NCBI GenBank assembly: GCA_018335855.1
Contig: JAGXRM010000055.1
Coordinates: 1 to 64,000 of the forward strand
Direction of reading: 5' to 3'
Length of the DNA stretch: 64,000 nt
DNA from: Clostridiales bacterium
Lineage (GTDB): Bacteria; Bacillota; Dethiobacteria; Dethiobacterales; Dethiobacteraceae
The first letter of the stretch is position 1. Each line of letters opens with the position of its first letter. The notes beneath the pieces were generated by a model. It was not told the origin of the DNA. It saw only the letters and a program-made list of their open reading frames with translations, and did no database searches. Position numbers and translations under genes: made by a program. Shown in pieces: positions 33,623 through 60,545 of this stretch.

Positions 33623-33665
33623 ATATAGTAAAACCGGGCTTATTTAGCCCGGTTTTACTATATCT
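33621..33665. terminator. Long bidirectional terminator
   Basis: AGATATAGTAAAACCGGGC-TTATTTA-GCCCGGTTTTACTATATCT, a 19-base perfect stem between convergent genes. The stop codon of the minus-strand selenoprotein lies in the loop. Confidence 0.9.
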
Positions 33666-33991
33666 TTCAGCGTTTCCATTGTTATATTTCTGTGTGCAGT
33701 ATTCCATACGCATTGGCCGTCACGGATAAGTAAGACCTGCGGCGACTCGTGGCGTACACCTGTTTTACTGGCAACAGCCTGAGAGACGTCTCTTGCTTCC
33801 TGAACAACAACACGGCAAACATCGACGGCTTGCGCTTCTTTGCATTCTAAAAACCTGTCCACCTCCCGGTGGGCGCGTCCGCTTACCGGTCACGTGGCAC
33901 TGTGTTTAAAAATAAGCACGGGTTTTTTATCAGAACCGGCCAAGGAGTGCTCCAGGTCACTTACATTACTAATCTGAATAATATTAGACAT
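33644..33991 (-). CDS. YtxJ-like thioredoxin-fold selenoprotein (TGA at 33890-33892 read as Sec)
   Basis: Reading through one in-frame TGA gives 115 residues. The segment LIFKHSATUPVSGRAHREVD aligns with the KHSxxCP active site of YtxJ/DUF2847 bacillithiol-related redox proteins, with Sec34 exactly at the redox Cys. The frame stays coding to TAA 33644. GAGGTGG precedes ATG 33991. A hairpin with a G-rich loop sits 18-31 bases 3' of the TGA, the geometry of a bacterial SECIS. A conventional annotation would show only a 72-codon fragment. Proposed role: cytosolic thiol/selenol redox; partner unknown. Confidence 0.85.
33859..33872 (-). promoter_or_regulatory. Candidate SECIS hairpin in the YtxJ-like gene
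   Basis: On the minus strand CCACC-GGGA-GGTGG; the apical loop begins 23 bases after the TGA and starts with G. Confidence 0.65.
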
Positions 33992-34084
33992 GTCTAACCA
34001 CCTCGCTGTATTATAATAGTTACTATTCCACATTTATCCGAAAAAATCCTTCTTAAAGCGAAGGCAACAGATGCCATTCATGGA

Positions 34085-44811: not shown

Positions 44812-46113
44812 TTGCAGAAAAATGGAGGAAAAAGTTTAGTATTTTTAAGACTGCTTGTTTTATCAGCTTTTGTTGTGCTGATTTTTTCCGGGTGCGGGGC
44901 CAAAAAATCTCCTGTATCTCCCGTAGCTGCTGTGGTCAGTGACGCGTGTATCCTCTGTCACATCAGTCCAGAGGCTATTGACATGATGCATGTCCCGCCG
45001 GAAGTTGCCGCCGGCGGCGGTGGGTGAGGCGTGGCGGGCCCGCAGTTAGCGGGCAGCGAAATGTTTTGTATCAGTGAGGATTTTCTCAGCTCGGAACACG
45101 GCAAGCTCGGCTGCATCGCCTGTCACGGCGGTGAAAATGTCGGAGATTTTGGGAAGGCTCATGCCGGGGTAAACCGTTATCCGTCAGCAGATGCCGGCGG
45201 TATCTGTAATCAATGCCACGGTGAAATAGGCGCAACCTTTGCTAATTCCATCCACTATACGGTTCAGGGGATGGCAAACGCTCTGGAAAACTTCACCCAT
45301 CCGGGAGTGTTGGACGTGGACGGCCCGTTGAAGACGGCGTTTGATAACAATTGTTACAAATGCCATGCAACATGTGGTTCCTGCCATGTCAGCAGGCCAA
45401 AAGCGTTTACCGGCGGTCTTCACTCCCAGCATGTTTTCACTAAGCGCCCGCCAATGGAAGACACTTGCTACGGTTGCCATGGTGCCAGAAATGCTGGCGA
45501 ATACATGGGTAAAGTTGGCTATACCAAGGATGTTCACTTTGAGTCCGGCAAACATTGTGCAGATTGTCACAATGTAAGTAATTTCCACGGTACCGGTGTT
45601 GCAGAGCAGAATATGTATGAAGTTGACCTGCCTCAATGTACGGACTGTCATGAAAATATTTATAGTGGTTCGTCCATTCCAGCCCATAACATACATTCTG
45701 CGGACACCATGTCCTGCCAGGTATGTCACGCATCAGCCAATAATAACTGCTTTGACTGTCATGCAACGCAAAAAACGGATGACAGTGTTGCTGGGGTGGC
45801 CGATCAGATGAGAATTATGTTTAAAATCGGCCTAAACCCGGAGAGGACCGAGGAAAGGCCATACAAGTACATTACTTTGCGTCATATTCCCACGACGCCG
45901 GATACCTTTGCCCCGCTGGGCGGTGAACTACCCAACTATGACCTGATTCCCAACTGGAAATACTCACCAACGCATAATATCCAGCGCAAAACAGTTCAGA
46001 ACGAGAGCTGCGATTCTTGTCACGGGAATCAGTACATTTGGCTGCAGGAGAAGGATTTACGGGAGAACGACAGCAAGTCCAACCTGAAACTGGTTGTTCC
46101 GGATCTGCCTTAA
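44812..46113 (+). CDS. Eleven-haem c-type cytochrome lipoprotein with selenocysteine (TGA 45025-45027)
   Basis: Reading through one in-frame TGA gives 433 residues. The lipoprotein signal LRLLVLSAFVVLIFSGCG places it outside the membrane. Eleven CxxCH haem sites are visible: CILCH before the TGA, then CIACH, CNQCH, CYKCH, CGSCH, CYGCH, CADCH, CTDCH, CQVCH, CFDCH and CDSCH. The TGA is codon 72 in the context GGGGUGVAGPQ. Without read-through the signal peptide and first haem would be cut from the other ten. A SECIS-like hairpin follows the TGA. TTG 44812 has GAGAGGTGA at good spacing. A rhodanese lipoprotein follows. Likely an extracytoplasmic electron-transfer or reductase protein; substrate unknown. 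Confidence 0.85.
45038..45054 (+). promoter_or_regulatory. Candidate SECIS hairpin in the cytochrome gene
   Basis: GCCCGC-AGTTA-GCGGGC, a perfect 6-base stem. The loop begins 17 bases after the TGA with G as its second base, inside the known bacterial SECIS range. Confidence 0.75.
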
Positions 46114-51133: not shown

Positions 51134-51378
51134 TGATATGCTCCCCTTGTAGTAGACAGTTGAAATAATAAAACTGTTAATTACAAGGATGAGCTATTTT
51201 TGTGCCTCACTGGGTGAAAGTATCAGGGCCAGATAAGGTTGCAGCTATTGAAAAATATCTTCGAGACGAAGATTCACTTAGTCATATAGCCACTCAGCTA
51301 GGTGTCCGTGTGCCATCCATCAGAAAATGGCTTAACAAGTATCAATCATTAGGTCCTGACAGCCTGCTTAATCAATGA
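51134..51378 (+). mobile_element. 5' fragment of an IS3/IS150-type insertion sequence
   Basis: A terminal repeat-like TGATATGCTCCCCTTGTAGT is followed by a short ORF at GTG 51202. It encodes an HTH transposase N-terminus (SLSHIATQLGVRVPSIRKWL, ending SLLNQ-stop). The rest of the transposase (OrfB with DDE residues) is absent. The element ends abruptly against an nrfA fragment at about 51377, showing deletion after insertion. Confidence 0.7.
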
Positions 51379-51640
51379 AATTGGCCGCCAGGAAATGCGA
51401 ACCTTGGTCTGCGCCCAGTGCCATGTTACCTACTACCTCGACCCTAAAACAGCAGAGGTCAAAATCCCCTGGTCGCAAGAACCAAATATAAATGCGGTTG
51501 AAAACTACTTTTCTGCCTCTCTTTTCCGCGAATGGACACATACCATGACCGAGGCTGATTTAGTTAAGCTACGCCATCAGGACTACGAATTTTTCCTGGG
51601 CAGTAATCATTTTGAGGCCGGCGTAACCTGTGTCGATTAG
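51377..51640 (+). pseudogene. Internal fragment of cytochrome c nitrite reductase (nrfA)
   Basis: The frame GRQEMRTLVCAQCHVTYYLD (CxxCH haem), then VKIPWSQ and VKLRHQDYEFFLG through GVTCVD-stop matches the middle of NrfA, the pentahaem ammonia-forming nitrite reductase. The next haem motif (usually ADCHMP) is lost to the stop. It is missing both ends and abuts the IS fragment, so it is a relic. Confidence 0.75.
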
Positions 51641-51669
51641 GACACCTTACTAAGTAAAGGGAGGTATAA

Positions 51670-52185
51670 ATGATGTTGCGAGACGCTTATGAGCTCATGA
51701 AATTACTCCCAATTGGGACTGAGGCTGTGAAATTCGAACTCAAGGATATTTTTGGAAATATAGTTACACTAGACGATTTTTTGGGTAAGTATTGGGTAGT
51801 GCTGGAGTTTGGCTCCTTCACGTGACCTCCCTTCCGGAGCCAGATGGCTCCCATGGAGAGCGTAGCCGCTGAATTAAAATCAAAGCCCGTACGATTTTTA
51901 ATCATTTACACTCGTGAAGCCCACCCCGGCCAATATAATTTTAAGCATATTCCTCAACACTGCAACATAGAAGACAAGAGCAAGATGGCAGCAATGCTTC
52001 AACAAGAAACTGGCTTGGAAAACAGAACCATATTGATTGATGATATTAATGATTCTGTAACGAGAACGTATCGGGGATTTCCCAACAAGGCGTATATCAT
52101 TGGCCTTAACGGCAAAATAGTTTACGCCGATCGCTGGGCTTCTGCCGATAGAATCAGTAAAGAGGTACACAGTCTCTTGAAATAA
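51670..52185 (+). CDS. Iodothyronine deiodinase-like selenoprotein (TGA 51823-51825 read as Sec)
   Basis: Read-through gives 171 residues. VVLEFGSFTUPPFRSQM places Sec52 exactly where vertebrate deiodinases have NFGSCTUPPF. Downstream, FLIIYTREAHPGQYNFK matches the deiodinase VIYIEEAH region, and the C-terminal half is a thioredoxin-like fold with RTILIDDINDSVTRTYRGFP and KAYIIGLNGKIVYADRW. AAAGGGAGG precedes the paired ATG codons at 51670 and 51673. A hairpin of SECIS form follows the TGA. Thyroid hormone is not the substrate; a peroxidase or reductive dehalogenation role is open. It lies downstream of decayed genes and carries its own ribosome site. Confidence 0.88.
51836..51851 (+). promoter_or_regulatory. 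Candidate SECIS hairpin in the deiodinase-like gene
   Basis: GGAGCC-AGAT-GGCTCC, a perfect 6-base stem. The loop starts 17 bases after the TGA and has G as its second base. Confidence 0.75.
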
Positions 52186-52274
52186 CTATAAACAAGTAAC
52201 TGACTATGCTCAGGAACATTACAGTGAATAATTACCAAAAGCATCTCTGAATTTACAAATTTCATAATGAAAAG

Positions 52275-52305
52275 CAAAGTGGGCTTTAATTCGTAGCCCA
52301 CTTTG
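52275..52305 (+). terminator. Terminator after the deiodinase-like gene
   Basis: CAAAGTGGGCT-TTAATTCGT-AGCCCACTTTG, 11-base stem, then GTGTATTTATT. Confidence 0.75.
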
Positions 52306-52405
52306 TGTATTTATTAAATGTATAAGAGGTTTTCATTTATAATTTCCACAGAATAAGTTAAGCGAAAACATCAATAATAAATATAATAAGGGAAGGTGAT
52401 TTTCT

Positions 52406-53515
52406 TTGAAGATGTTTACTGCCAAAAGAGCTGCTTTACTTATACTGGTTGCAGGGATTATTTTTTTTGTATCCTCCCTGCTCTTAAATGATACCCGGGG
52501 GCAAAAGGAACCGGATGATCCAAATATTCCTGAAGAAGAACAGCAAGCTCTGGATAAATTTTTTCTAAACCTTAAATCAGGAGGGCCCTCTAAAGATGGA
52601 ATTCCCCCTATTGAAAACCCCAATTATCTATCCATAACTGACGCCGATGAAAATATTGATGATAATGAGGTCGTATTTGTTGTTGAATCTAGTGATGGTG
52701 TTTTTATTTATCGTCAGCGAATTCTTGCCTGGCATGAAATCGTAAATGAAACGTTTTCAGGGGAGAAGATGAGCATTACCTACTGCCCCTTGACTGGTTC
52801 TGCTGTAGGCTTTAAGGGGGCTGTTTCCAGAGGGGAAACCACCTTTGGAACATCGGGTAAGCTTTTAAACAGTAACTTGGTGATGTATGACCGGTTAACA
52901 GGCAGCTATATTCCTCAGTTGCTGGGAAAGGCTATCAATGGGAACTTAAAGGGAGAAAGACTGGATGAATTTCCAATTATCTGGACTAGGTGGTTTAAAG
53001 CAAAATCATTTTATGAAGAAGCCCAGGTTTTATCAGAAAAGACAGGTTTTATCAGAAATTATCGAGGGGATCCTTATGGCTCATATCTGGAAAAAAACAA
53101 TTACTATGATAGCGGTGGAGCTTTATTTCCCGTCATGCATCAAGATAACAGATTTGAGCCAAAAGAAGTTGTCATGGCTGGAAGAGTAAATGAAACACCT
53201 TTTGCTATTTTAAAGCAAAAGATTAGGAGCGAAAAAGTGATGAACCTGGAACTTGAAAACATCCCATTGGTCGCTCTTTATGATGGGGAGCTGGATACGG
53301 TGAGAATTTTTAGAAGAATGGATCAGGATCAAACGTTAACCTTTAGATTTGAAAACGGTGATTTTCTTGATGAAAATACCATGTCAATATGGAATGAAAG
53401 AGGAGCAGCGGTGGAAGGACAACAGCAAGGCGCCCAGCTGGAAGCTATAAATTCTTTTGACGTAATGTGGTTTGCCTGGGTTGCATTTCACCCTGAAACA
53501 GAAGTTTATGAATAG
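52406..53515 (+). CDS. DUF3179 domain protein, membrane-anchored
   Basis: 369-residue protein with an N-terminal anchor (about 8-26, ALLILVAGIIFFVSSLLL) and a DUF3179 domain. RILAWHEIVNETFSGEKMSI and TYCPLTGSAVGFKG are the family signature with its single conserved Cys, followed by TTFGTSGKLLNSNLVMYDR. TTG 52406 follows GGGAAGGTGAT. It probably faces the outside. Function unknown; the Cys in a YCPLTG loop suggests a redox or metal role. It overlaps the next membrane-protein gene by 8 bases. Confidence 0.82.
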   Translation: MKMFTAKRAALLILVAGIIFFVSSLLLNDTRGQKEPDDPNIPEEEQQALDKFFLNLKSGGPSKDGIPPIENPNYLSITDADENIDDNEVVFVVESSDGVFIYRQRILAWHEIVNETFSGEKMSITYCPLTGSAVGFKGAVSRGETTFGTSGKLLNSNLVMYDRLTGSYIPQLLGKAINGNLKGERLDEFPIIWTRWFKAKSFYEEAQVLSEKTGFIRNYRGDPYGSYLEKNNYYDSGGALFPVMHQDNRFEPKEVVMAGRVNETPFAILKQKIRSEKVMNLELENIPLVALYDGELDTVRIFRRMDQDQTLTFRFENGDFLDENTMSIWNERGAAVEGQQQGAQLEAINSFDVMWFAWVAFHPETEVYE

Positions 53516-54074: not shown

Positions 54075-54171
54075 CATAATCTATATTTTAACAGGGCCTC
54101 TTTTCTGTTTGTTATCTCTTGTTTTACTTTTTCCAATCCAAAGCATTTCGAGGAACATTTTCAGTTGACTA

Positions 54172-54915
54172 TCATAATTGAACAGGTAGTTTTTTAATGC
54201 TACCCGGTGATTCGATATCCTGCAATGCCTGTAAAGCCATGGTAACTACACGAGTTTGTGTTTCCACGTCAAAAGCCTTACCGGTAACTCTTCCCAGAGG
54301 AAAATTAACATGTACTGCTCTGGGAACCCGGATTTTTGCGGTTAATCCCTGCATTAATGTTATACTCACAGTAATGAGACCGGCTGTTTCCAGTTCCCGC
54401 TGAATCAATCCCACCGATTGATGGCACAGCGGTCAGCCTGGAGTAAGTAAAACTATATCAGTTTCTTGTTTTAATAGTTCCCGGGCTACTTTGCCTGCAT
54501 TGGCAATCAGTGTTTCATGCAGGGCATTAAGGATAAAGCCCATAAACCCATAATTTGTTGCAGAGATTCCTTTAATAAAGCCGGACTGCACCAGTTCCTC
54601 AAGTCTTGTTATGGGGAAGACACAATTAATATCTTTATCTGCGTCAGTATGGTCATAATGAGTGTGAGTGATTAGATAGTCCTCTAGTGGCGCTTTAGCC
54701 GAAACTTCCCGAAAGGAAGCATCCCCCTTTTTTGCCTTGACATCAAAGGGTGCCTGATTCTTTAAATGCACGCCAGCGGTAGTAACAAGGGCGACGCGAC
54801 ATTCGTTTAGAGTTTTTTGCAGGGGCTGCCACGGTACTTCTTTGCCCGTGTTATCAACTATAAATGGTTTAACAAGCTTCTGTGTCAAATTTTGTTTTAA
54901 CATATATTCTCTCAT
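54172..54915 (-). CDS. Selenoprotein B family reductase-like protein (PrdB-like; TGA 54433-54435 read as Sec)
   Basis: Read-through yields 247 residues (243 if the second ATG, 54903, is used). RVALVTTAGVHLKNQAPFD, ITHTHYDHTDADKDINCVFP and GFMGFILNALHETL precede VLLTPGUPLCHQSVGLIQRE, matching the glycine/betaine/D-proline reductase selenoprotein B family (PrdB/GrdB), with Sec161 at its known place. A 7-base-stem SECIS-like hairpin follows the TGA. No proline reductase PrdA or other Prd/Grd subunits are nearby, so the substrate is probably different. Confidence 0.85.
54404..54422 (-). promoter_or_regulatory. Candidate SECIS hairpin in the PrdB-like gene
   Basis: On the minus strand ATCAATC-GGTGG-GATTGAT; perfect stem, loop starting 18 bases after the TGA with G first. 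Confidence 0.75.
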
Positions 54916-55054: not shown

Positions 55055-55786
55055 CTATGATGGAAGCATCTGCTTTTCCCGCCAATAGATTAGCACCAAA
55101 ATTACGGCAAAAAGAACGATACTTGAAAACTGGGCAGTATTGAAGACAACAAAAGTAGGTTCACTGCGGAAGTAATCGATAAAAGAACGGGCGGCAAAAT
55201 ACCCGGCGAGATAGGTCAGGAACAGCTGCCCTTCTCTTACCCTGTCTCTCAGATACCAGAGGACAAAGAAGATAAGCAGTGTAGCTATCATCGTATACAG
55301 CGGGATATTGTGATAGGGCACGCCGCCAACCAGCCTCGGCCAGGGCGCCGATGGCGCATGCAGGCCGTAGACATCGCAACCGAGTCGGGCGATTGCTTCC
55401 CCCAGGGCGAGGGATGGGGCGAAAACATCAGCCATGGCCCAAAATTTAACTTTCCGGCGGCGGACAAACCAGATTGCGACCAACACTCCTCCGGTAAGAC
55501 CGCCCAGAAAAGCCAGGCCGCCTTCGTGAATACGGAAAAGATAGAGGGGGTCAGCGAGAAAAAGATTGAAATTCAACAACACGGAGAGAATGCGGGAACC
55601 GACGACGGCTCCGACAACCGCGTAAATGGCAAACTCGAAGATCAGATCCGGTTCAATTTTTTTGGCAATGGCACGACGGTGGGCAAGGGCCAGCCCAACT
55701 AAAATAGCAGCAACCAACCCCAATCCGTAAAGATGGAAAGTCAATGGCCCAAGGTAAAATGAGGGCTCCACATAATTCAGAAGCAT
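55055..55786 (-). CDS. Lgt-like prolipoprotein diacylglyceryl transferase family protein
   Basis: 243-residue membrane protein with about seven helices. The Lgt landmark RIHEGGLAFLGGLTGG (about 84-99) is present, but the usual GRIGNFxN signature is replaced by ARLGCDVYGLHA (about 134-145). The conserved Arg is kept while the Asn residues are not. It could attach diacylglycerol to lipoprotein Cys or be a diverged relative. AAGGAG lies within the end of the upstream ccdA-like gene, and the two overlap by 10 bases. It is the third gene of the Sec-thioredoxin operon. Confidence 0.75.
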   Translation of the reverse strand: MLLNYVEPSFYLGPLTFHLYGLGLVAAILVGLALAHRRAIAKKIEPDLIFEFAIYAVVGAVVGSRILSVLLNFNLFLADPLYLFRIHEGGLAFLGGLTGGVLVAIWFVRRRKVKFWAMADVFAPSLALGEAIARLGCDVYGLHAPSAPWPRLVGGVPYHNIPLYTMIATLLIFFVLWYLRDRVREGQLFLTYLAGYFAARSFIDYFRSEPTFVVFNTAQFSSIVLFAVILVLIYWREKQMLPS

Positions 55787-56211
55787 CTGTTCATCTCCTT
55801 TGCACTAGAACTATTGTACCCTTTTACATTTAACGGAACCTTCTTAATTCCCGGCATTGAAAAAGTTAAAACTCCCAAAAGGTGTAACCCCATTACTATT
55901 GCCACCACAGCCAGAAGGTAATACCACCCGGCCCCAATCCGGCCAAAAAAGAGGCCAAAATAAGAGGCAATAAAACCGAGAATGGCAAAAGTCACAGCCA
56001 AGCCTGTCACAAACGACAGCGACATCAAAAAACCTTTTATTCTTGACCCTTCGCTGTAGCCGCCGATGTAGCCGACCATAACAGGTGTCATTGACAAAAT
56101 GCAGGGGCTAAAACTTGTAACTAAGCCGCCTGCAAAAACGATCACGTAAGTGAGAATAGACGTGTTTGCAAGGGAATTTGGTATAATTTCAGAGAAAAAC
56201 AGATCCAGCAA
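55777..56211 (-). CDS. CcdA-like membrane protein, half length
   Basis: 144-residue protein with three to four helices, carrying AGGLVTSFSPCILSMTPVMVGYIGGYS with the first active Cys and Pro of CcdA/DsbD transmembrane domains. CcdA is usually about 220-240 residues with a second Cys helix (SPCATP), absent here. After KKVPLNVKGYN the sequence becomes SSSAKEMNRCF, coding from the lgt ribosome site, so a deletion probably removed the second half. A single-Cys half might still dimerise. TTG start with GAGGTGAGG upstream; 21 bases after the Sec thioredoxin. Confidence 0.7.
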   Translation of the reverse strand: MLDLFFSEIIPNSLANTSILTYVIVFAGGLVTSFSPCILSMTPVMVGYIGGYSEGSRIKGFLMSLSFVTGLAVTFAILGFIASYFGLFFGRIGAGWYYLLAVVAIVMGLHLLGVLTFSMPGIKKVPLNVKGYNSSSAKEMNRCF

Positions 56212-56232: not shown

Positions 56233-56670
56233 TTAATTATCCAGAATTTGTGCTATTCTGCTCTCTATATTGCCTTTTGTCAAAACCCCTGTATCGTTTG
56301 CAACAATTTCACCATTGCTGTCAATATAGAAAAATGCCGGGATGTATCTAACCATGAATTCATTCGCCATGCGGTTGCCTTCCTGATCGCCAACATCGAC
56401 AATAACAAAAACAACTTGATCTTCATACTTCTCTTTAAGAGCCATAACCACGGGCTCCATTAGTTTGCATGTAATTCACCAATCAGCATAAAATTCTACA
56501 AATACAGGTTTTCCTTCGGCCAGTGCCTGTTCATAAAGGGCAATTGGATCAGGTGTAGCGGAAAACTGACTCTCAGTCCGATTCAAAAAAGGAATATATG
56601 GTTTTGCCATTACACCAACAACCAGTAAGCCTACAAATACCAGGATTAACCGTTTTACACTAGTCTTCAA
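56233..56670 (-). CDS. Membrane-anchored thioredoxin-like selenoprotein (WUxxC; TGA 56476-56478 read as Sec)
   Basis: Read-through gives 145 residues. The N-terminal anchor (KRLILVFVGLLVVGVMA) is followed by VFVEFYADWUITCKLMEPVV, the thioredoxin active site with Sec65 in place of the first Cys, and the fold continues through RYIPAFFYIDSNGEIV, containing the cis-Pro. TTG 56670 follows AGAGGAGAA. The extracytoplasmic domain would be reduced by the neighbouring CcdA-like protein. A BlaI-type palindrome lies just upstream, so expression is probably regulated with blaI-blaR1. Confidence 0.88.
56439..56457 (-). promoter_or_regulatory. Candidate SECIS hairpin in the thioredoxin-like gene
   Basis: On the minus strand GAGCC-CGTGGTTAT-GGCTC; loop of 9 bases beginning 24 bases after the TGA, with G second. 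Confidence 0.6.
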
Positions 56671-59303: not shown

Positions 59304-60545
59304 ATGGTCAGCCTCGAAAAGCTCCATCCTGAGGAGCGAAACTTCCTCGAAAACGTACCCTGTCCGACATTTGCAGCACAGCCTTGGGTCAGGGGCAAAA
59401 AACTGAAGGAAAGGCGAGTCGCAATAATTTCCACGGCCGGTCTGCATCAGCCCGAAGACCGCCCCTTTACCTCTGTGGAAGGTGATTACTACCGTATAAT
59501 TCCCGGGGACATTCAATCAAATAACCTGGTAATGAGCCATGTCTCGGTCAATTTTGACAGGACAGGCTTTTACCGGGACTTAAATGTGGTCTTTCCCATT
59601 GACCGCCTGAGGGAACTTGCAGAAAGCGGCGATATCGGCAGCATAGCAAGCTTTCATTATTCTTTCATGGGCGCTGATGATCCTATGAGATGGGAGCAGA
59701 CGGCACGCCATCTTGCAGGCCTGTTAAAAAAAGACAATATTGACGCCGTGTTGCTGGTGCCGGTCTGACCGCTTTGTACGCGCGCCGTTGGCGTGCTGGC
59801 ACACTTTCTTGAGGAGGAAGGGCTTGCTACCACGCAAATCAGCCTGATTCGCCTGCATACGGATGTTATCAAGCCGCCAAGAGCCCTTTGGGTGCCTTTT
59901 GAACTTGGTCGCCCGTTAGGAGAGCCAAATAACCCAGCTTTTCAGAAGCGTGTTCTGATGTCCGCCCTCGGTCTGCTTGAAGCGCCACGGGGCCCGCTGC
60001 TGATCGATTTCCCGGATGATACCCCGTTATTAGGGGGGGCGCCGGTTATGCTTGCCTGCCCATATGTTCCGCCGGCAGAGGATGCCGAGACCACGCAGGC
60101 CGACCGGCTTTGCAAGACCTTTAAAACAGAAATGACATCGATGAGACCCTGGTATGATCAGGCCTTAAAAAAGCGAGGGCGTACCATAGTCGGAATTAGC
60201 AAACTCACACCCGAGGCTATCGCAGATTTTTTGTGTTCTTTCCTTGAAGGCAGCACTCCTACTCAGAACCCGCGCCAGGATGTATCTCTTGCATACCAAC
60301 TCGGGTATTCAGTAGAAGACCTGAAGGCCTACTACTATGAGGCTATCACGGCGCAACCTGGTGCTGATGTTCTGTCTAGCGAAGATCTCGATAAATGGTT
60401 TTGGGAAAATACAGTTGCCGGAAAATTCTTGCGGGAATTAAGAGGAATTTGTCTTAAAAACGAAGATAAATTGTTGCAACAGACCGCCGCAAGGCGGATA
60501 ATACCTCAAAAAACCCTGTTAACAAATACTGGTGGTAAAGGATAG
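59304..60545 (+). CDS. Selenoprotein B family reductase-like protein (TGA 59766-59768 read as Sec)
   Basis: Read-through yields 413 residues. RRVAIISTAGLHQPEDRPF, VMSHVSVNFDRTGFYRDLNV and the Phe-rich HYSFMGADDP precede VLLVPVUPLCTRAVGVLAHF, the selenoprotein B family active site with Sec155. After about residue 230 comes a distinct C-terminal extension of about 180 residues (IVGISKLTPEAIADFLCSFL, YYYEAITAQPGADVLSSEDL) not present in the shorter paralogue in this window. GGAGG precedes ATG 59304. SECIS-like hairpin after the TGA. Substrate unknown. Confidence 0.85.
59780..59796 (+). promoter_or_regulatory. Candidate SECIS hairpin in the long selenoprotein B-like gene
   Basis: GCGCGCC-GTT-GGCGTGC with one G-U pair; loop begins 19 bases after the TGA with G first. 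Confidence 0.7.

What the first reader, a model, noticed from the sequence alone, without database searches (positions are those of the whole stretch)
51670..52185. Bacterial iodothyronine deiodinase-like selenoprotein
EFGSFTUPPF and the later IYTREAH stretch closely resemble the vertebrate deiodinase active site NFGSCTUPPF and IYIEEAH. The TGA is exactly at the Sec column, and a GGAGCC-AGAT-GGCTCC hairpin follows. Bacterial members exist but are little studied, and this one lies in a cluster of other selenoproteins.
Basis: partly seen in the sequence, partly recalled or inferred. Interest (0 to 1): 0.88.

Follow-up and report, generated by a model that had tools for sequence, protein, structure and literature searches.

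The report
Bacterial deiodinase-like selenoprotein
An anaerobic bacterium carries a small selenium-containing enzyme whose active site matches that of the animal enzymes that strip iodine from thyroid hormone; such bacterial relatives have been catalogued since 2005, but I found no paper giving any of them a tested function.

Summary
Window 51670-52185 (+) is a 171-aa frame with one in-frame TGA (51823-51825). It falls exactly on the catalytic Sec column of animal deiodinases (EFGSFTUPPF, IYTREAH, IPQHCNIED). PF00837 scores 58.7 bits (cut-off 27). Of 177,635 PDB sequences, mouse Dio3 and Dio2 are the two best hits. A hairpin meeting the published bacterial SECIS rules follows the TGA; only 17 of 2099 window TGAs rank ahead of it. 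The genome has SelA, SelB and tRNA-Sec(UCA). All seven residues of the proposed Dio proton relay are kept, but the thyronine-binding omega loop is shortened and its Trp missing, the proximal and distal Cys are absent, and there is no membrane anchor. It is therefore a soluble deiodinase-family selenoprotein; nothing suggests thyroid hormone as substrate. The kind has been known since the 2005 Sargasso Sea survey. In this class only this lineage has it; the identical copy in a second MAG is probably a misbinned contig. Most likely mechanism (inferred): selenolate attack with relay-supplied proton, removing halogen (or oxygen) from a small electrophile, then thiol recycling. At least four other Sec genes lie within 64 kb. 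Novelty: new member of a known kind.

The parts
51670..52185 (+). Coding sequence of the deiodinase-family selenoprotein, 171 aa, Sec at residue 52
   Evidence: PF00837 58.7 bits; NF038285 E 2.2e-24; PDB Dio3 4tr3 E 2.1e-13
51658..51667 (+). Ribosome-binding site aaagggaggt just upstream of ATGATG
   Evidence: read directly from the sequence
51823..51825 (+). In-frame TGA, predicted selenocysteine codon (Sec52), in the Sec column of Dio1-3
51836..51851 (+). Bacterial SECIS hairpin GGAGCC-AGAU-GGCUCC, apical loop 16 nt after UGA; lower stem CUCC (51827-51830)/GGAG (51855-51858)
   Evidence: meets the published bSECIS constraints (PMC13188914)
51814..51825 (+). Ser49-Phe50-Thr51-Sec52 of the active site; S and T are relay residues, Phe replaces the proximal Cys
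   Evidence: alignment A1; residue roles from PMC11592359
51907..51927 (+). Tyr80, Glu83, His85, Pro86 (YTREAHP) = Dio2 Tyr157, Glu160, His162, Pro163
51952..51963 (+). PQHC: His97 (= Dio2 His182, Dio1 His174) and Cys98, the only Cys of the protein (possible resolving thiol, inferred)
52274..52307 (+). Strong 12-bp hairpin downstream (-21.4 kcal/mol for 51 nt), probable transcript end; weak U-tract

Best explanation
The gene encodes a soluble, cytoplasmic selenoenzyme of the deiodinase (PF00837) branch of the thioredoxin/peroxiredoxin fold. UGA 51823 is decoded as Sec by SelB/tRNA-Sec on the SECIS hairpin that follows (strongly supported, not shown chemically). The Sec52 selenolate attacks a soft electrophilic atom, most plausibly the halogen of a small iodo- or bromo-aromatic or a similar activated compound. 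It takes the atom formally as X+, while the Ser49/Thr51/Tyr80/Glu83/His85/His97 network passes a proton to the leaving carbanion, as proposed for Dio1-3 (inferred from residue conservation). The oxidised selenium is returned to selenol by thiols, directly or through Cys98, which follows relay His97. Bacilliredoxin- or thioredoxin-type proteins, which are also Sec genes in this window, are candidate reductants (inferred). Thyroid hormone is very unlikely as the natural substrate because the thyronine-binding omega loop is shortened and the membrane/dimerisation anchor absent.
For: Family: PF00837 E 6.9e-16, over the cut-off; best PDB hits Dio3 and Dio2; 36% identity to Dio3 against 25% to a Mycolicibacterium deiodinase-like protein; clade with Dio2, Dio3 and that protein at 96/94 support. 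Sec: TGA in the Sec column, SECIS by the published rules and in the top 0.9% of window TGAs, SelA, SelB, tRNA-Sec UCA. Mechanism: all seven residues Ser, Thr, Sec, Tyr, Glu, His, His named for the Dio relay (PMC11592359; PMC9141512) are present. The Dio3 Phe258 position aligns with Pro138, as with the Pro of Dio1. Gene neighbours and genome show an active Sec-based thiol metabolism.
Against: No substrate, expression or activity data. The omega loop is 5-8 residues shorter and lacks the conserved Trp. The proximal Cys (Phe50 here) and distal Cys of Dio1 are absent, so recycling must differ. AlphaFold on the single sequence gave no usable model (pLDDT 36), so the fold rests on sequence. No operon partner points to halogen metabolism; upstream is a truncated nrfA piece and downstream a DUF3179 gene. 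The relay could equally serve peroxide or other oxidant reduction.
Confidence: 0.45

Rival explanations
1. Same protein and Sec, but the physiological reaction is thiol-dependent reduction of peroxides or other reactive oxygen, nitrogen or sulfur species (peroxidase-like); the authors of the 2005 survey suggested a general redox function.
For: Secondary matches to AhpC-TSA and Redoxin; Dio structures carry a peroxiredoxin-like module (PMC11592359); window context of redox selenoproteins BrxC and Trx; no evidence of halogenated substrates; PMC1088965 suggests a redox role.
Against: The peroxiredoxin motif PxxxTxxC is not met (Leu45 at the Pro position; sequence). The Dio-specific EAH and PQH motifs, absent from the ResA/Prx relatives examined, are kept.
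Confidence: 0.38
2. Thiol-disulfide or metal/metalloid-handling thioredoxin-like selenoprotein (ResA-like reductant, or a Hg/As/Te/Se-oxyanion detoxifier) that has kept a deiodinase-like site by descent.
For: ResA-type proteins are the next-best sequence relatives; many prokaryotic Sec proteins are linked to metal resistance (PMC13188914).
Against: No CxxC/UxxC: the site is UPPF. No Cys other than Cys98, so a classical dithiol exchange within the motif is impossible.
Confidence: 0.12
3. Not a functional selenoprotein: the TGA is a true stop or a decaying gene next to IS and nrfA remnants.
For: Upstream are a truncated nrfA fragment (PF02335 positions 166-249 only) and a helix-turn-helix transposase-like fragment; no independent close homolog is at hand to show selection.
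Against: TGA sits exactly on the Sec column, with SECIS, good RBS, 119 intact codons after it with conserved motifs, and the Sec machinery in the genome.
Confidence: 0.04

Closest known systems
Animal iodothyronine deiodinases Dio1-3 (PF00837; PDB 4tr3, 9h48)
   Same: Sec in FGSxTUPPF, relay Ser/Thr/Tyr/Glu/His/His, EAHP and PQHxxxED motifs; 36% identity to the Dio3 core over the aligned part
   Different: No N-terminal membrane helix or linker, shorter omega loop without Trp, no proximal or distal Cys, Pro instead of Phe258; bacterial in-frame SECIS
Bacterial deiodinase-like selenoproteins of the Sargasso Sea and GOS surveys (PMC1088965, PMC2398784; reviews PMC9312934, PMC13188914)
   Same: PF00837 family, Sec at the active site, bacterial SECIS
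   Different: The 2022 and 2026 reviews list the motif as UxxC, the GOS table gives none; here it is UPPF as in animals. Sequences of those members could not be fetched, so distance is untested. Those were marine surveys; this is a Dethiobacter-family anaerobe
NCBIfam NF038285 deiodinase family protein (347 positions) and Mycolicibacterium vanbaalenii WP_235881892 'deiodinase-like protein'
   Same: Homologous C-terminal domain (E 2.2e-24; E 7e-7), FGSxTCP and REAHPG
   Different: NF038285 members have about 175 further N-terminal residues and the score is below its cut-off (86.5 vs 250); the Mycolicibacterium protein has Cys, Asn for the relay Tyr and no PQH His
ResA/TlpA thiol-disulfide oxidoreductases and Sec peroxiredoxin-like proteins of the same phylum
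   Same: Thioredoxin-fold N-terminal half, about 26-46% identity over 50-115 residues
   Different: CxxC or UxxC sites, no EAHP or PQH; separate from the deiodinase clade at 96/94

Membership tests
Deiodinase family PF00837 | Score over Pfam's curated cut-off | tested here: met
   58.7 bits against 27
Deiodinase family PF00837 | Catalytic Sec/Cys in FGSxT[UC]P | tested here: met
   FGSFTUPPF aligned to Dio3 FGSCTCPPF
Deiodinase family PF00837 | Proton-relay residues Ser, Thr, Tyr, Glu, His, His around Sec | tested here: met
   S49, T51, Y80, E83, H85, H97
Deiodinase family PF00837 | Thioredoxin fold with Dio insertion | tested here: inconclusive
   Single-sequence AlphaFold pLDDT 36; sequence homology implies the fold
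Animal iodothyronine deiodinase (Dio1-3) | Omega loop with conserved Trp for thyronine binding | tested here: not met
   HPGQYNFKHIPQH versus HPSDGWVTTDSPYVIPQH; loop shorter, no Trp
Animal iodothyronine deiodinase (Dio1-3) | N-terminal transmembrane helix and linker | tested here: not met
   Only 51 residues before Sec, with no long hydrophobic run (by eye, no TM predictor run)
Animal iodothyronine deiodinase (Dio1-3) | Proximal (-2) and distal Cys for recycling | tested here: not met
   Phe50; only Cys is Cys98. Dio2 also lacks the proximal Cys (PMC9141512)
Animal iodothyronine deiodinase (Dio1-3) | Reductive deiodination of iodothyronines | not testable with these tools
   needs enzyme assay
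Bacterial selenoprotein | bSECIS after the UGA (loop 3-9 nt, G in first two, stem 4-16 bp, 16-37 nt spacing, MFE <= -7.5) | tested here: met
   loop 4, G second, 6 bp, 16 nt, -10.4 kcal/mol (rules in PMC13188914)
Bacterial selenoprotein | Host has SelA, SelB and tRNA-Sec | tested here: met
   SelA and SelB adjacent on C20; tRNA-Sec(UCA) on C57. SelD not searched
Bacterial selenoprotein | Chemical presence of Sec in the protein | not testable with these tools
   needs 75Se labelling or mass spectrometry
NF038285 deiodinase_rel equivalog | Full-length match over cut-off 250 bits | tested here: not met
   86.5 bits, positions 179-323 of 347
Peroxiredoxin | PxxxTxxC catalytic motif | tested here: not met
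   LEFGSFTU: Leu45 at the Pro position, Ser49 at the Thr position (sequence)
ResA/TlpA thiol-disulfide oxidoreductase | CxxC dithiol | tested here: not met
   UPPF, no second Cys near

The most novel reading that the evidence does not exclude
A strictly anaerobic Bacillota lineage uses a stand-alone, cofactor-free selenoenzyme with the complete vertebrate deiodinase catalytic network to dehalogenate small organohalogens, recycled through a single Cys next to the relay His instead of the Dio proximal Cys; it would be a living proxy for the bacterial precursor of animal deiodinases.
Probability: 0.25. Interest if true: 0.72.

Novelty: new member of a known kind. Interest (0 to 1): 0.38.

Why it matters
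Thyroid-hormone deiodinases are often treated as animal enzymes, but their active site already exists in bacteria that make no thyroid hormone. This member keeps every proposed relay residue yet lacks the thyronine-binding loop, membrane anchor and accessory cysteines. That makes it a natural minimal construct for separating the deiodination chemistry from hormone recognition, and a candidate for soluble Sec enzyme work that the membrane-bound animal Dios make hard.

Tried and rejected
Structure prediction from the single sequence failed, so no fold search was run. Scans of viral contigs with the protein and with a four-sequence alignment found no relative; no phage hit; one plasmid hit only; PHROGs nothing. 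Three class searches around other centres covered only 1-3 genomes each and say nothing. The apparent second copy (G375) was rejected as independent evidence: the contig is identical over the gene and about 8.2 kb, while the TypA of G375 is only 78% identical to that of the window genome; the same-genus genome has 90%. I considered a true stop codon or pseudogene, ResA and peroxiredoxin, and ranked them low or rejected them on motif and score.

Full report
OBSERVATION. The frame at 51670-52185 (+) opens with ATGATG behind a good ribosome-binding site (aaagggaggt) and runs 171 codons with a single TGA at codon 52. In the standard code it would stop after 51 residues; 119 further codons follow without interruption. 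The quoted peptides EFGSFTUPPF and IYTREAH are present. Pfam gives T4_deiodinase PF00837 at 58.7 bits (cut-off 27, E 6.9e-16), ahead of AhpC-TSA (36 bits). NCBIfam gives NF038285 'deiodinase family protein' at E 2.2e-24 but under its full-length cut-off. Among 177,635 PDB sequences the two best are mouse Dio3 (E 2.1e-13) and Dio2 (E 4.2e-6); ResA-like proteins start at 6e-4.

SELENOCYSTEINE. The TGA lies exactly in the Dio Sec column. The hairpin GGAGCC-AGAU-GGCUCC begins 10 nt after the TGA. Its loop starts 16 nt after the TGA, has G in position 2, and the stem is 6 bp with -10.4 kcal/mol. All the published bacterial SECIS constraints are met (PMC13188914). Over all 2099 TGAs of the window, both strands, 0.9% have an equal or better hairpin under the same rules. 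The genome holds SelA and SelB side by side on C20 and a tRNA-Sec with anticodon UCA on C57. Sec incorporation itself is inferred, not shown.

ACTIVE SITE. The Dio2/Dio3 structural work names Ser127, Thr129, Tyr157, Glu160, His162 and His182 (Dio2 numbering) around Sec130 as a hydrogen-bonded proton relay (PMC11592359), supported by mutagenesis in Dio1 (PMC9141512). The window protein has Ser49, Thr51, Tyr80, Glu83, His85 and His97, with Sec52, in those columns. The Mycolicibacterium plasmid 'deiodinase-like protein' WP_235881892 keeps Ser, Thr, Cys, Glu and the first His but has Asn for Tyr and lacks the PQH His. The window protein is thus nearer to the animal active site than that bacterial relative: 36% identity to Dio3 against 25%. 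The shielding Phe258 of Dio3 aligns with Pro138, as in Dio1. What is missing: the omega loop is shortened and lacks the Trp, the proximal Cys is Phe50, the distal Cys is absent, and there is no N-terminal membrane segment. Cys98, directly after relay His97, is the only Cys; its role as resolving thiol is a guess.

PHYLOGENY. A small tree puts the protein with Dio3, Dio2 and the Mycolicibacterium protein apart from ResA-like and Sec-Prx proteins (96/94); order inside the clade is not resolved and two branches are long.

DISTRIBUTION. Of 97 genomes of the class only the window genome and one other rang over the PF00837 cut-off. The other copy is the CROMO metagenome bin 'Dethiobacter sp.' (JAGXRN010000015.1), whose contig is identical through the gene and about 8.2 kb around it. 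TypA from this window is 90% identical in the same-genus genome and only 78% in that bin, so its copy is probably a misbinned contig of the window's species. The same-genus genome has no PF00837 match. In 398 genomes across the phylum only the window gene matches NF038285 beyond the N-terminal thioredoxin part with a strong score. The gene is therefore sporadic, and lateral acquisition is likely (inference), in keeping with the nrfA fragment (PF02335 positions 166-249 only) and transposase-like piece just upstream. G+C of the gene (43%) is close to that of the window (46%).

SURROUNDINGS. The gene looks monocistronic. A strong 12-bp hairpin follows (z -6.3), then a DUF3179 gene (PF11376) in its Cys form; DUF3179 itself is listed among families with Sec members (PMC9312934). 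Other Sec genes in the window: BrxC/YtxJ with TUPVS (33644-34033), PrdB/GrdB-like UPLC proteins (54169-54915 and 59304-60545) and a thioredoxin with WUITC (56233-56670).

MECHANISM. Shown: the gene, the family and the residue constellation. Strongly supported: Sec insertion. Inferred: selenolate attack on a soft electrophilic atom with the relay supplying the proton, then reduction by thiols. I place halogen removal from a small electrophile slightly above peroxide reduction because the Dio-specific relay motifs are kept whole while the peroxiredoxin motif is absent, but no substrate evidence exists. Thyroid hormone is not a plausible natural substrate.

KNOWN OR NEW. Bacterial deiodinase-like selenoproteins were found in the Sargasso Sea data in 2005 with both Sec and Cys forms (PMC1088965), tabulated again in GOS (PMC2398784), and are listed as predicted and uncharacterised in the 2022 and 2026 reviews. 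This is a new member of that kind, notable for keeping the animal UPPF/EAH/PQH site.

Noticed in passing
window 44812-46113 (+), TGA 45025-45027: Multihaem c-type cytochrome lipoprotein (lipobox LIFSGC, many CxxCH) whose frame is interrupted by one TGA (GGGGUGVAGPQ) followed by a strong SECIS-like hairpin GCCCGC-AGUUA-GCGGGC at 16 nt (-11.6 kcal/mol). The part before the TGA supplies the signal peptide and a CILCH haem site, so this may be a Sec-containing multihaem cytochrome; only weak matches to ExtM/GSU2203 families.
   Followed up: partly
window 33644-34033 (-): BrxC/YtxJ monothiol bacilliredoxin with Sec in place of the catalytic Cys (HSATUPVS), SECIS-like hairpin -7.6 kcal/mol.
   Followed up: partly
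window 56233-56670 (-): Membrane-anchored or secreted thioredoxin with WUITC active site next to a CcdA/DsbD-like gene.
   Followed up: partly
window 54169-54915 (-) and 59304-60545 (+): Two PrdB/GrdB-like selenoproteins (TPGUPLC and VPVUPLC) well below the equivalog cut-offs, one with about 190 extra C-terminal residues; not ordinary D-proline or glycine reductase subunits.
   Followed up: partly
window 55777-56211 (-): CcdA/DsbD transmembrane gene covering only the first half of PF02683 (4-115 of 219), ending in a TGA without a SECIS-like hairpin just before lgt; probably truncated rather than a selenoprotein.
   Followed up: partly
window 51395-51640 (+) and about 51195-51380 (+): Truncated nrfA (cytochrome c552) fragment ending at GVTCVD, and a helix-turn-helix transposase-like fragment, directly upstream of the deiodinase-like gene.
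   Followed up: partly
L034 / G375:C15 (JAGXRN010000015.1): 41-kb contig identical to the window around the gene sits in a MAG of another genus; TypA comparison suggests it is misbinned there.
   Followed up: yes
window 52406-53515 (+): DUF3179 protein, Cys form of a family that has Sec members, next to the deiodinase-like gene; whether the two are linked elsewhere was not tested.
   Followed up: no
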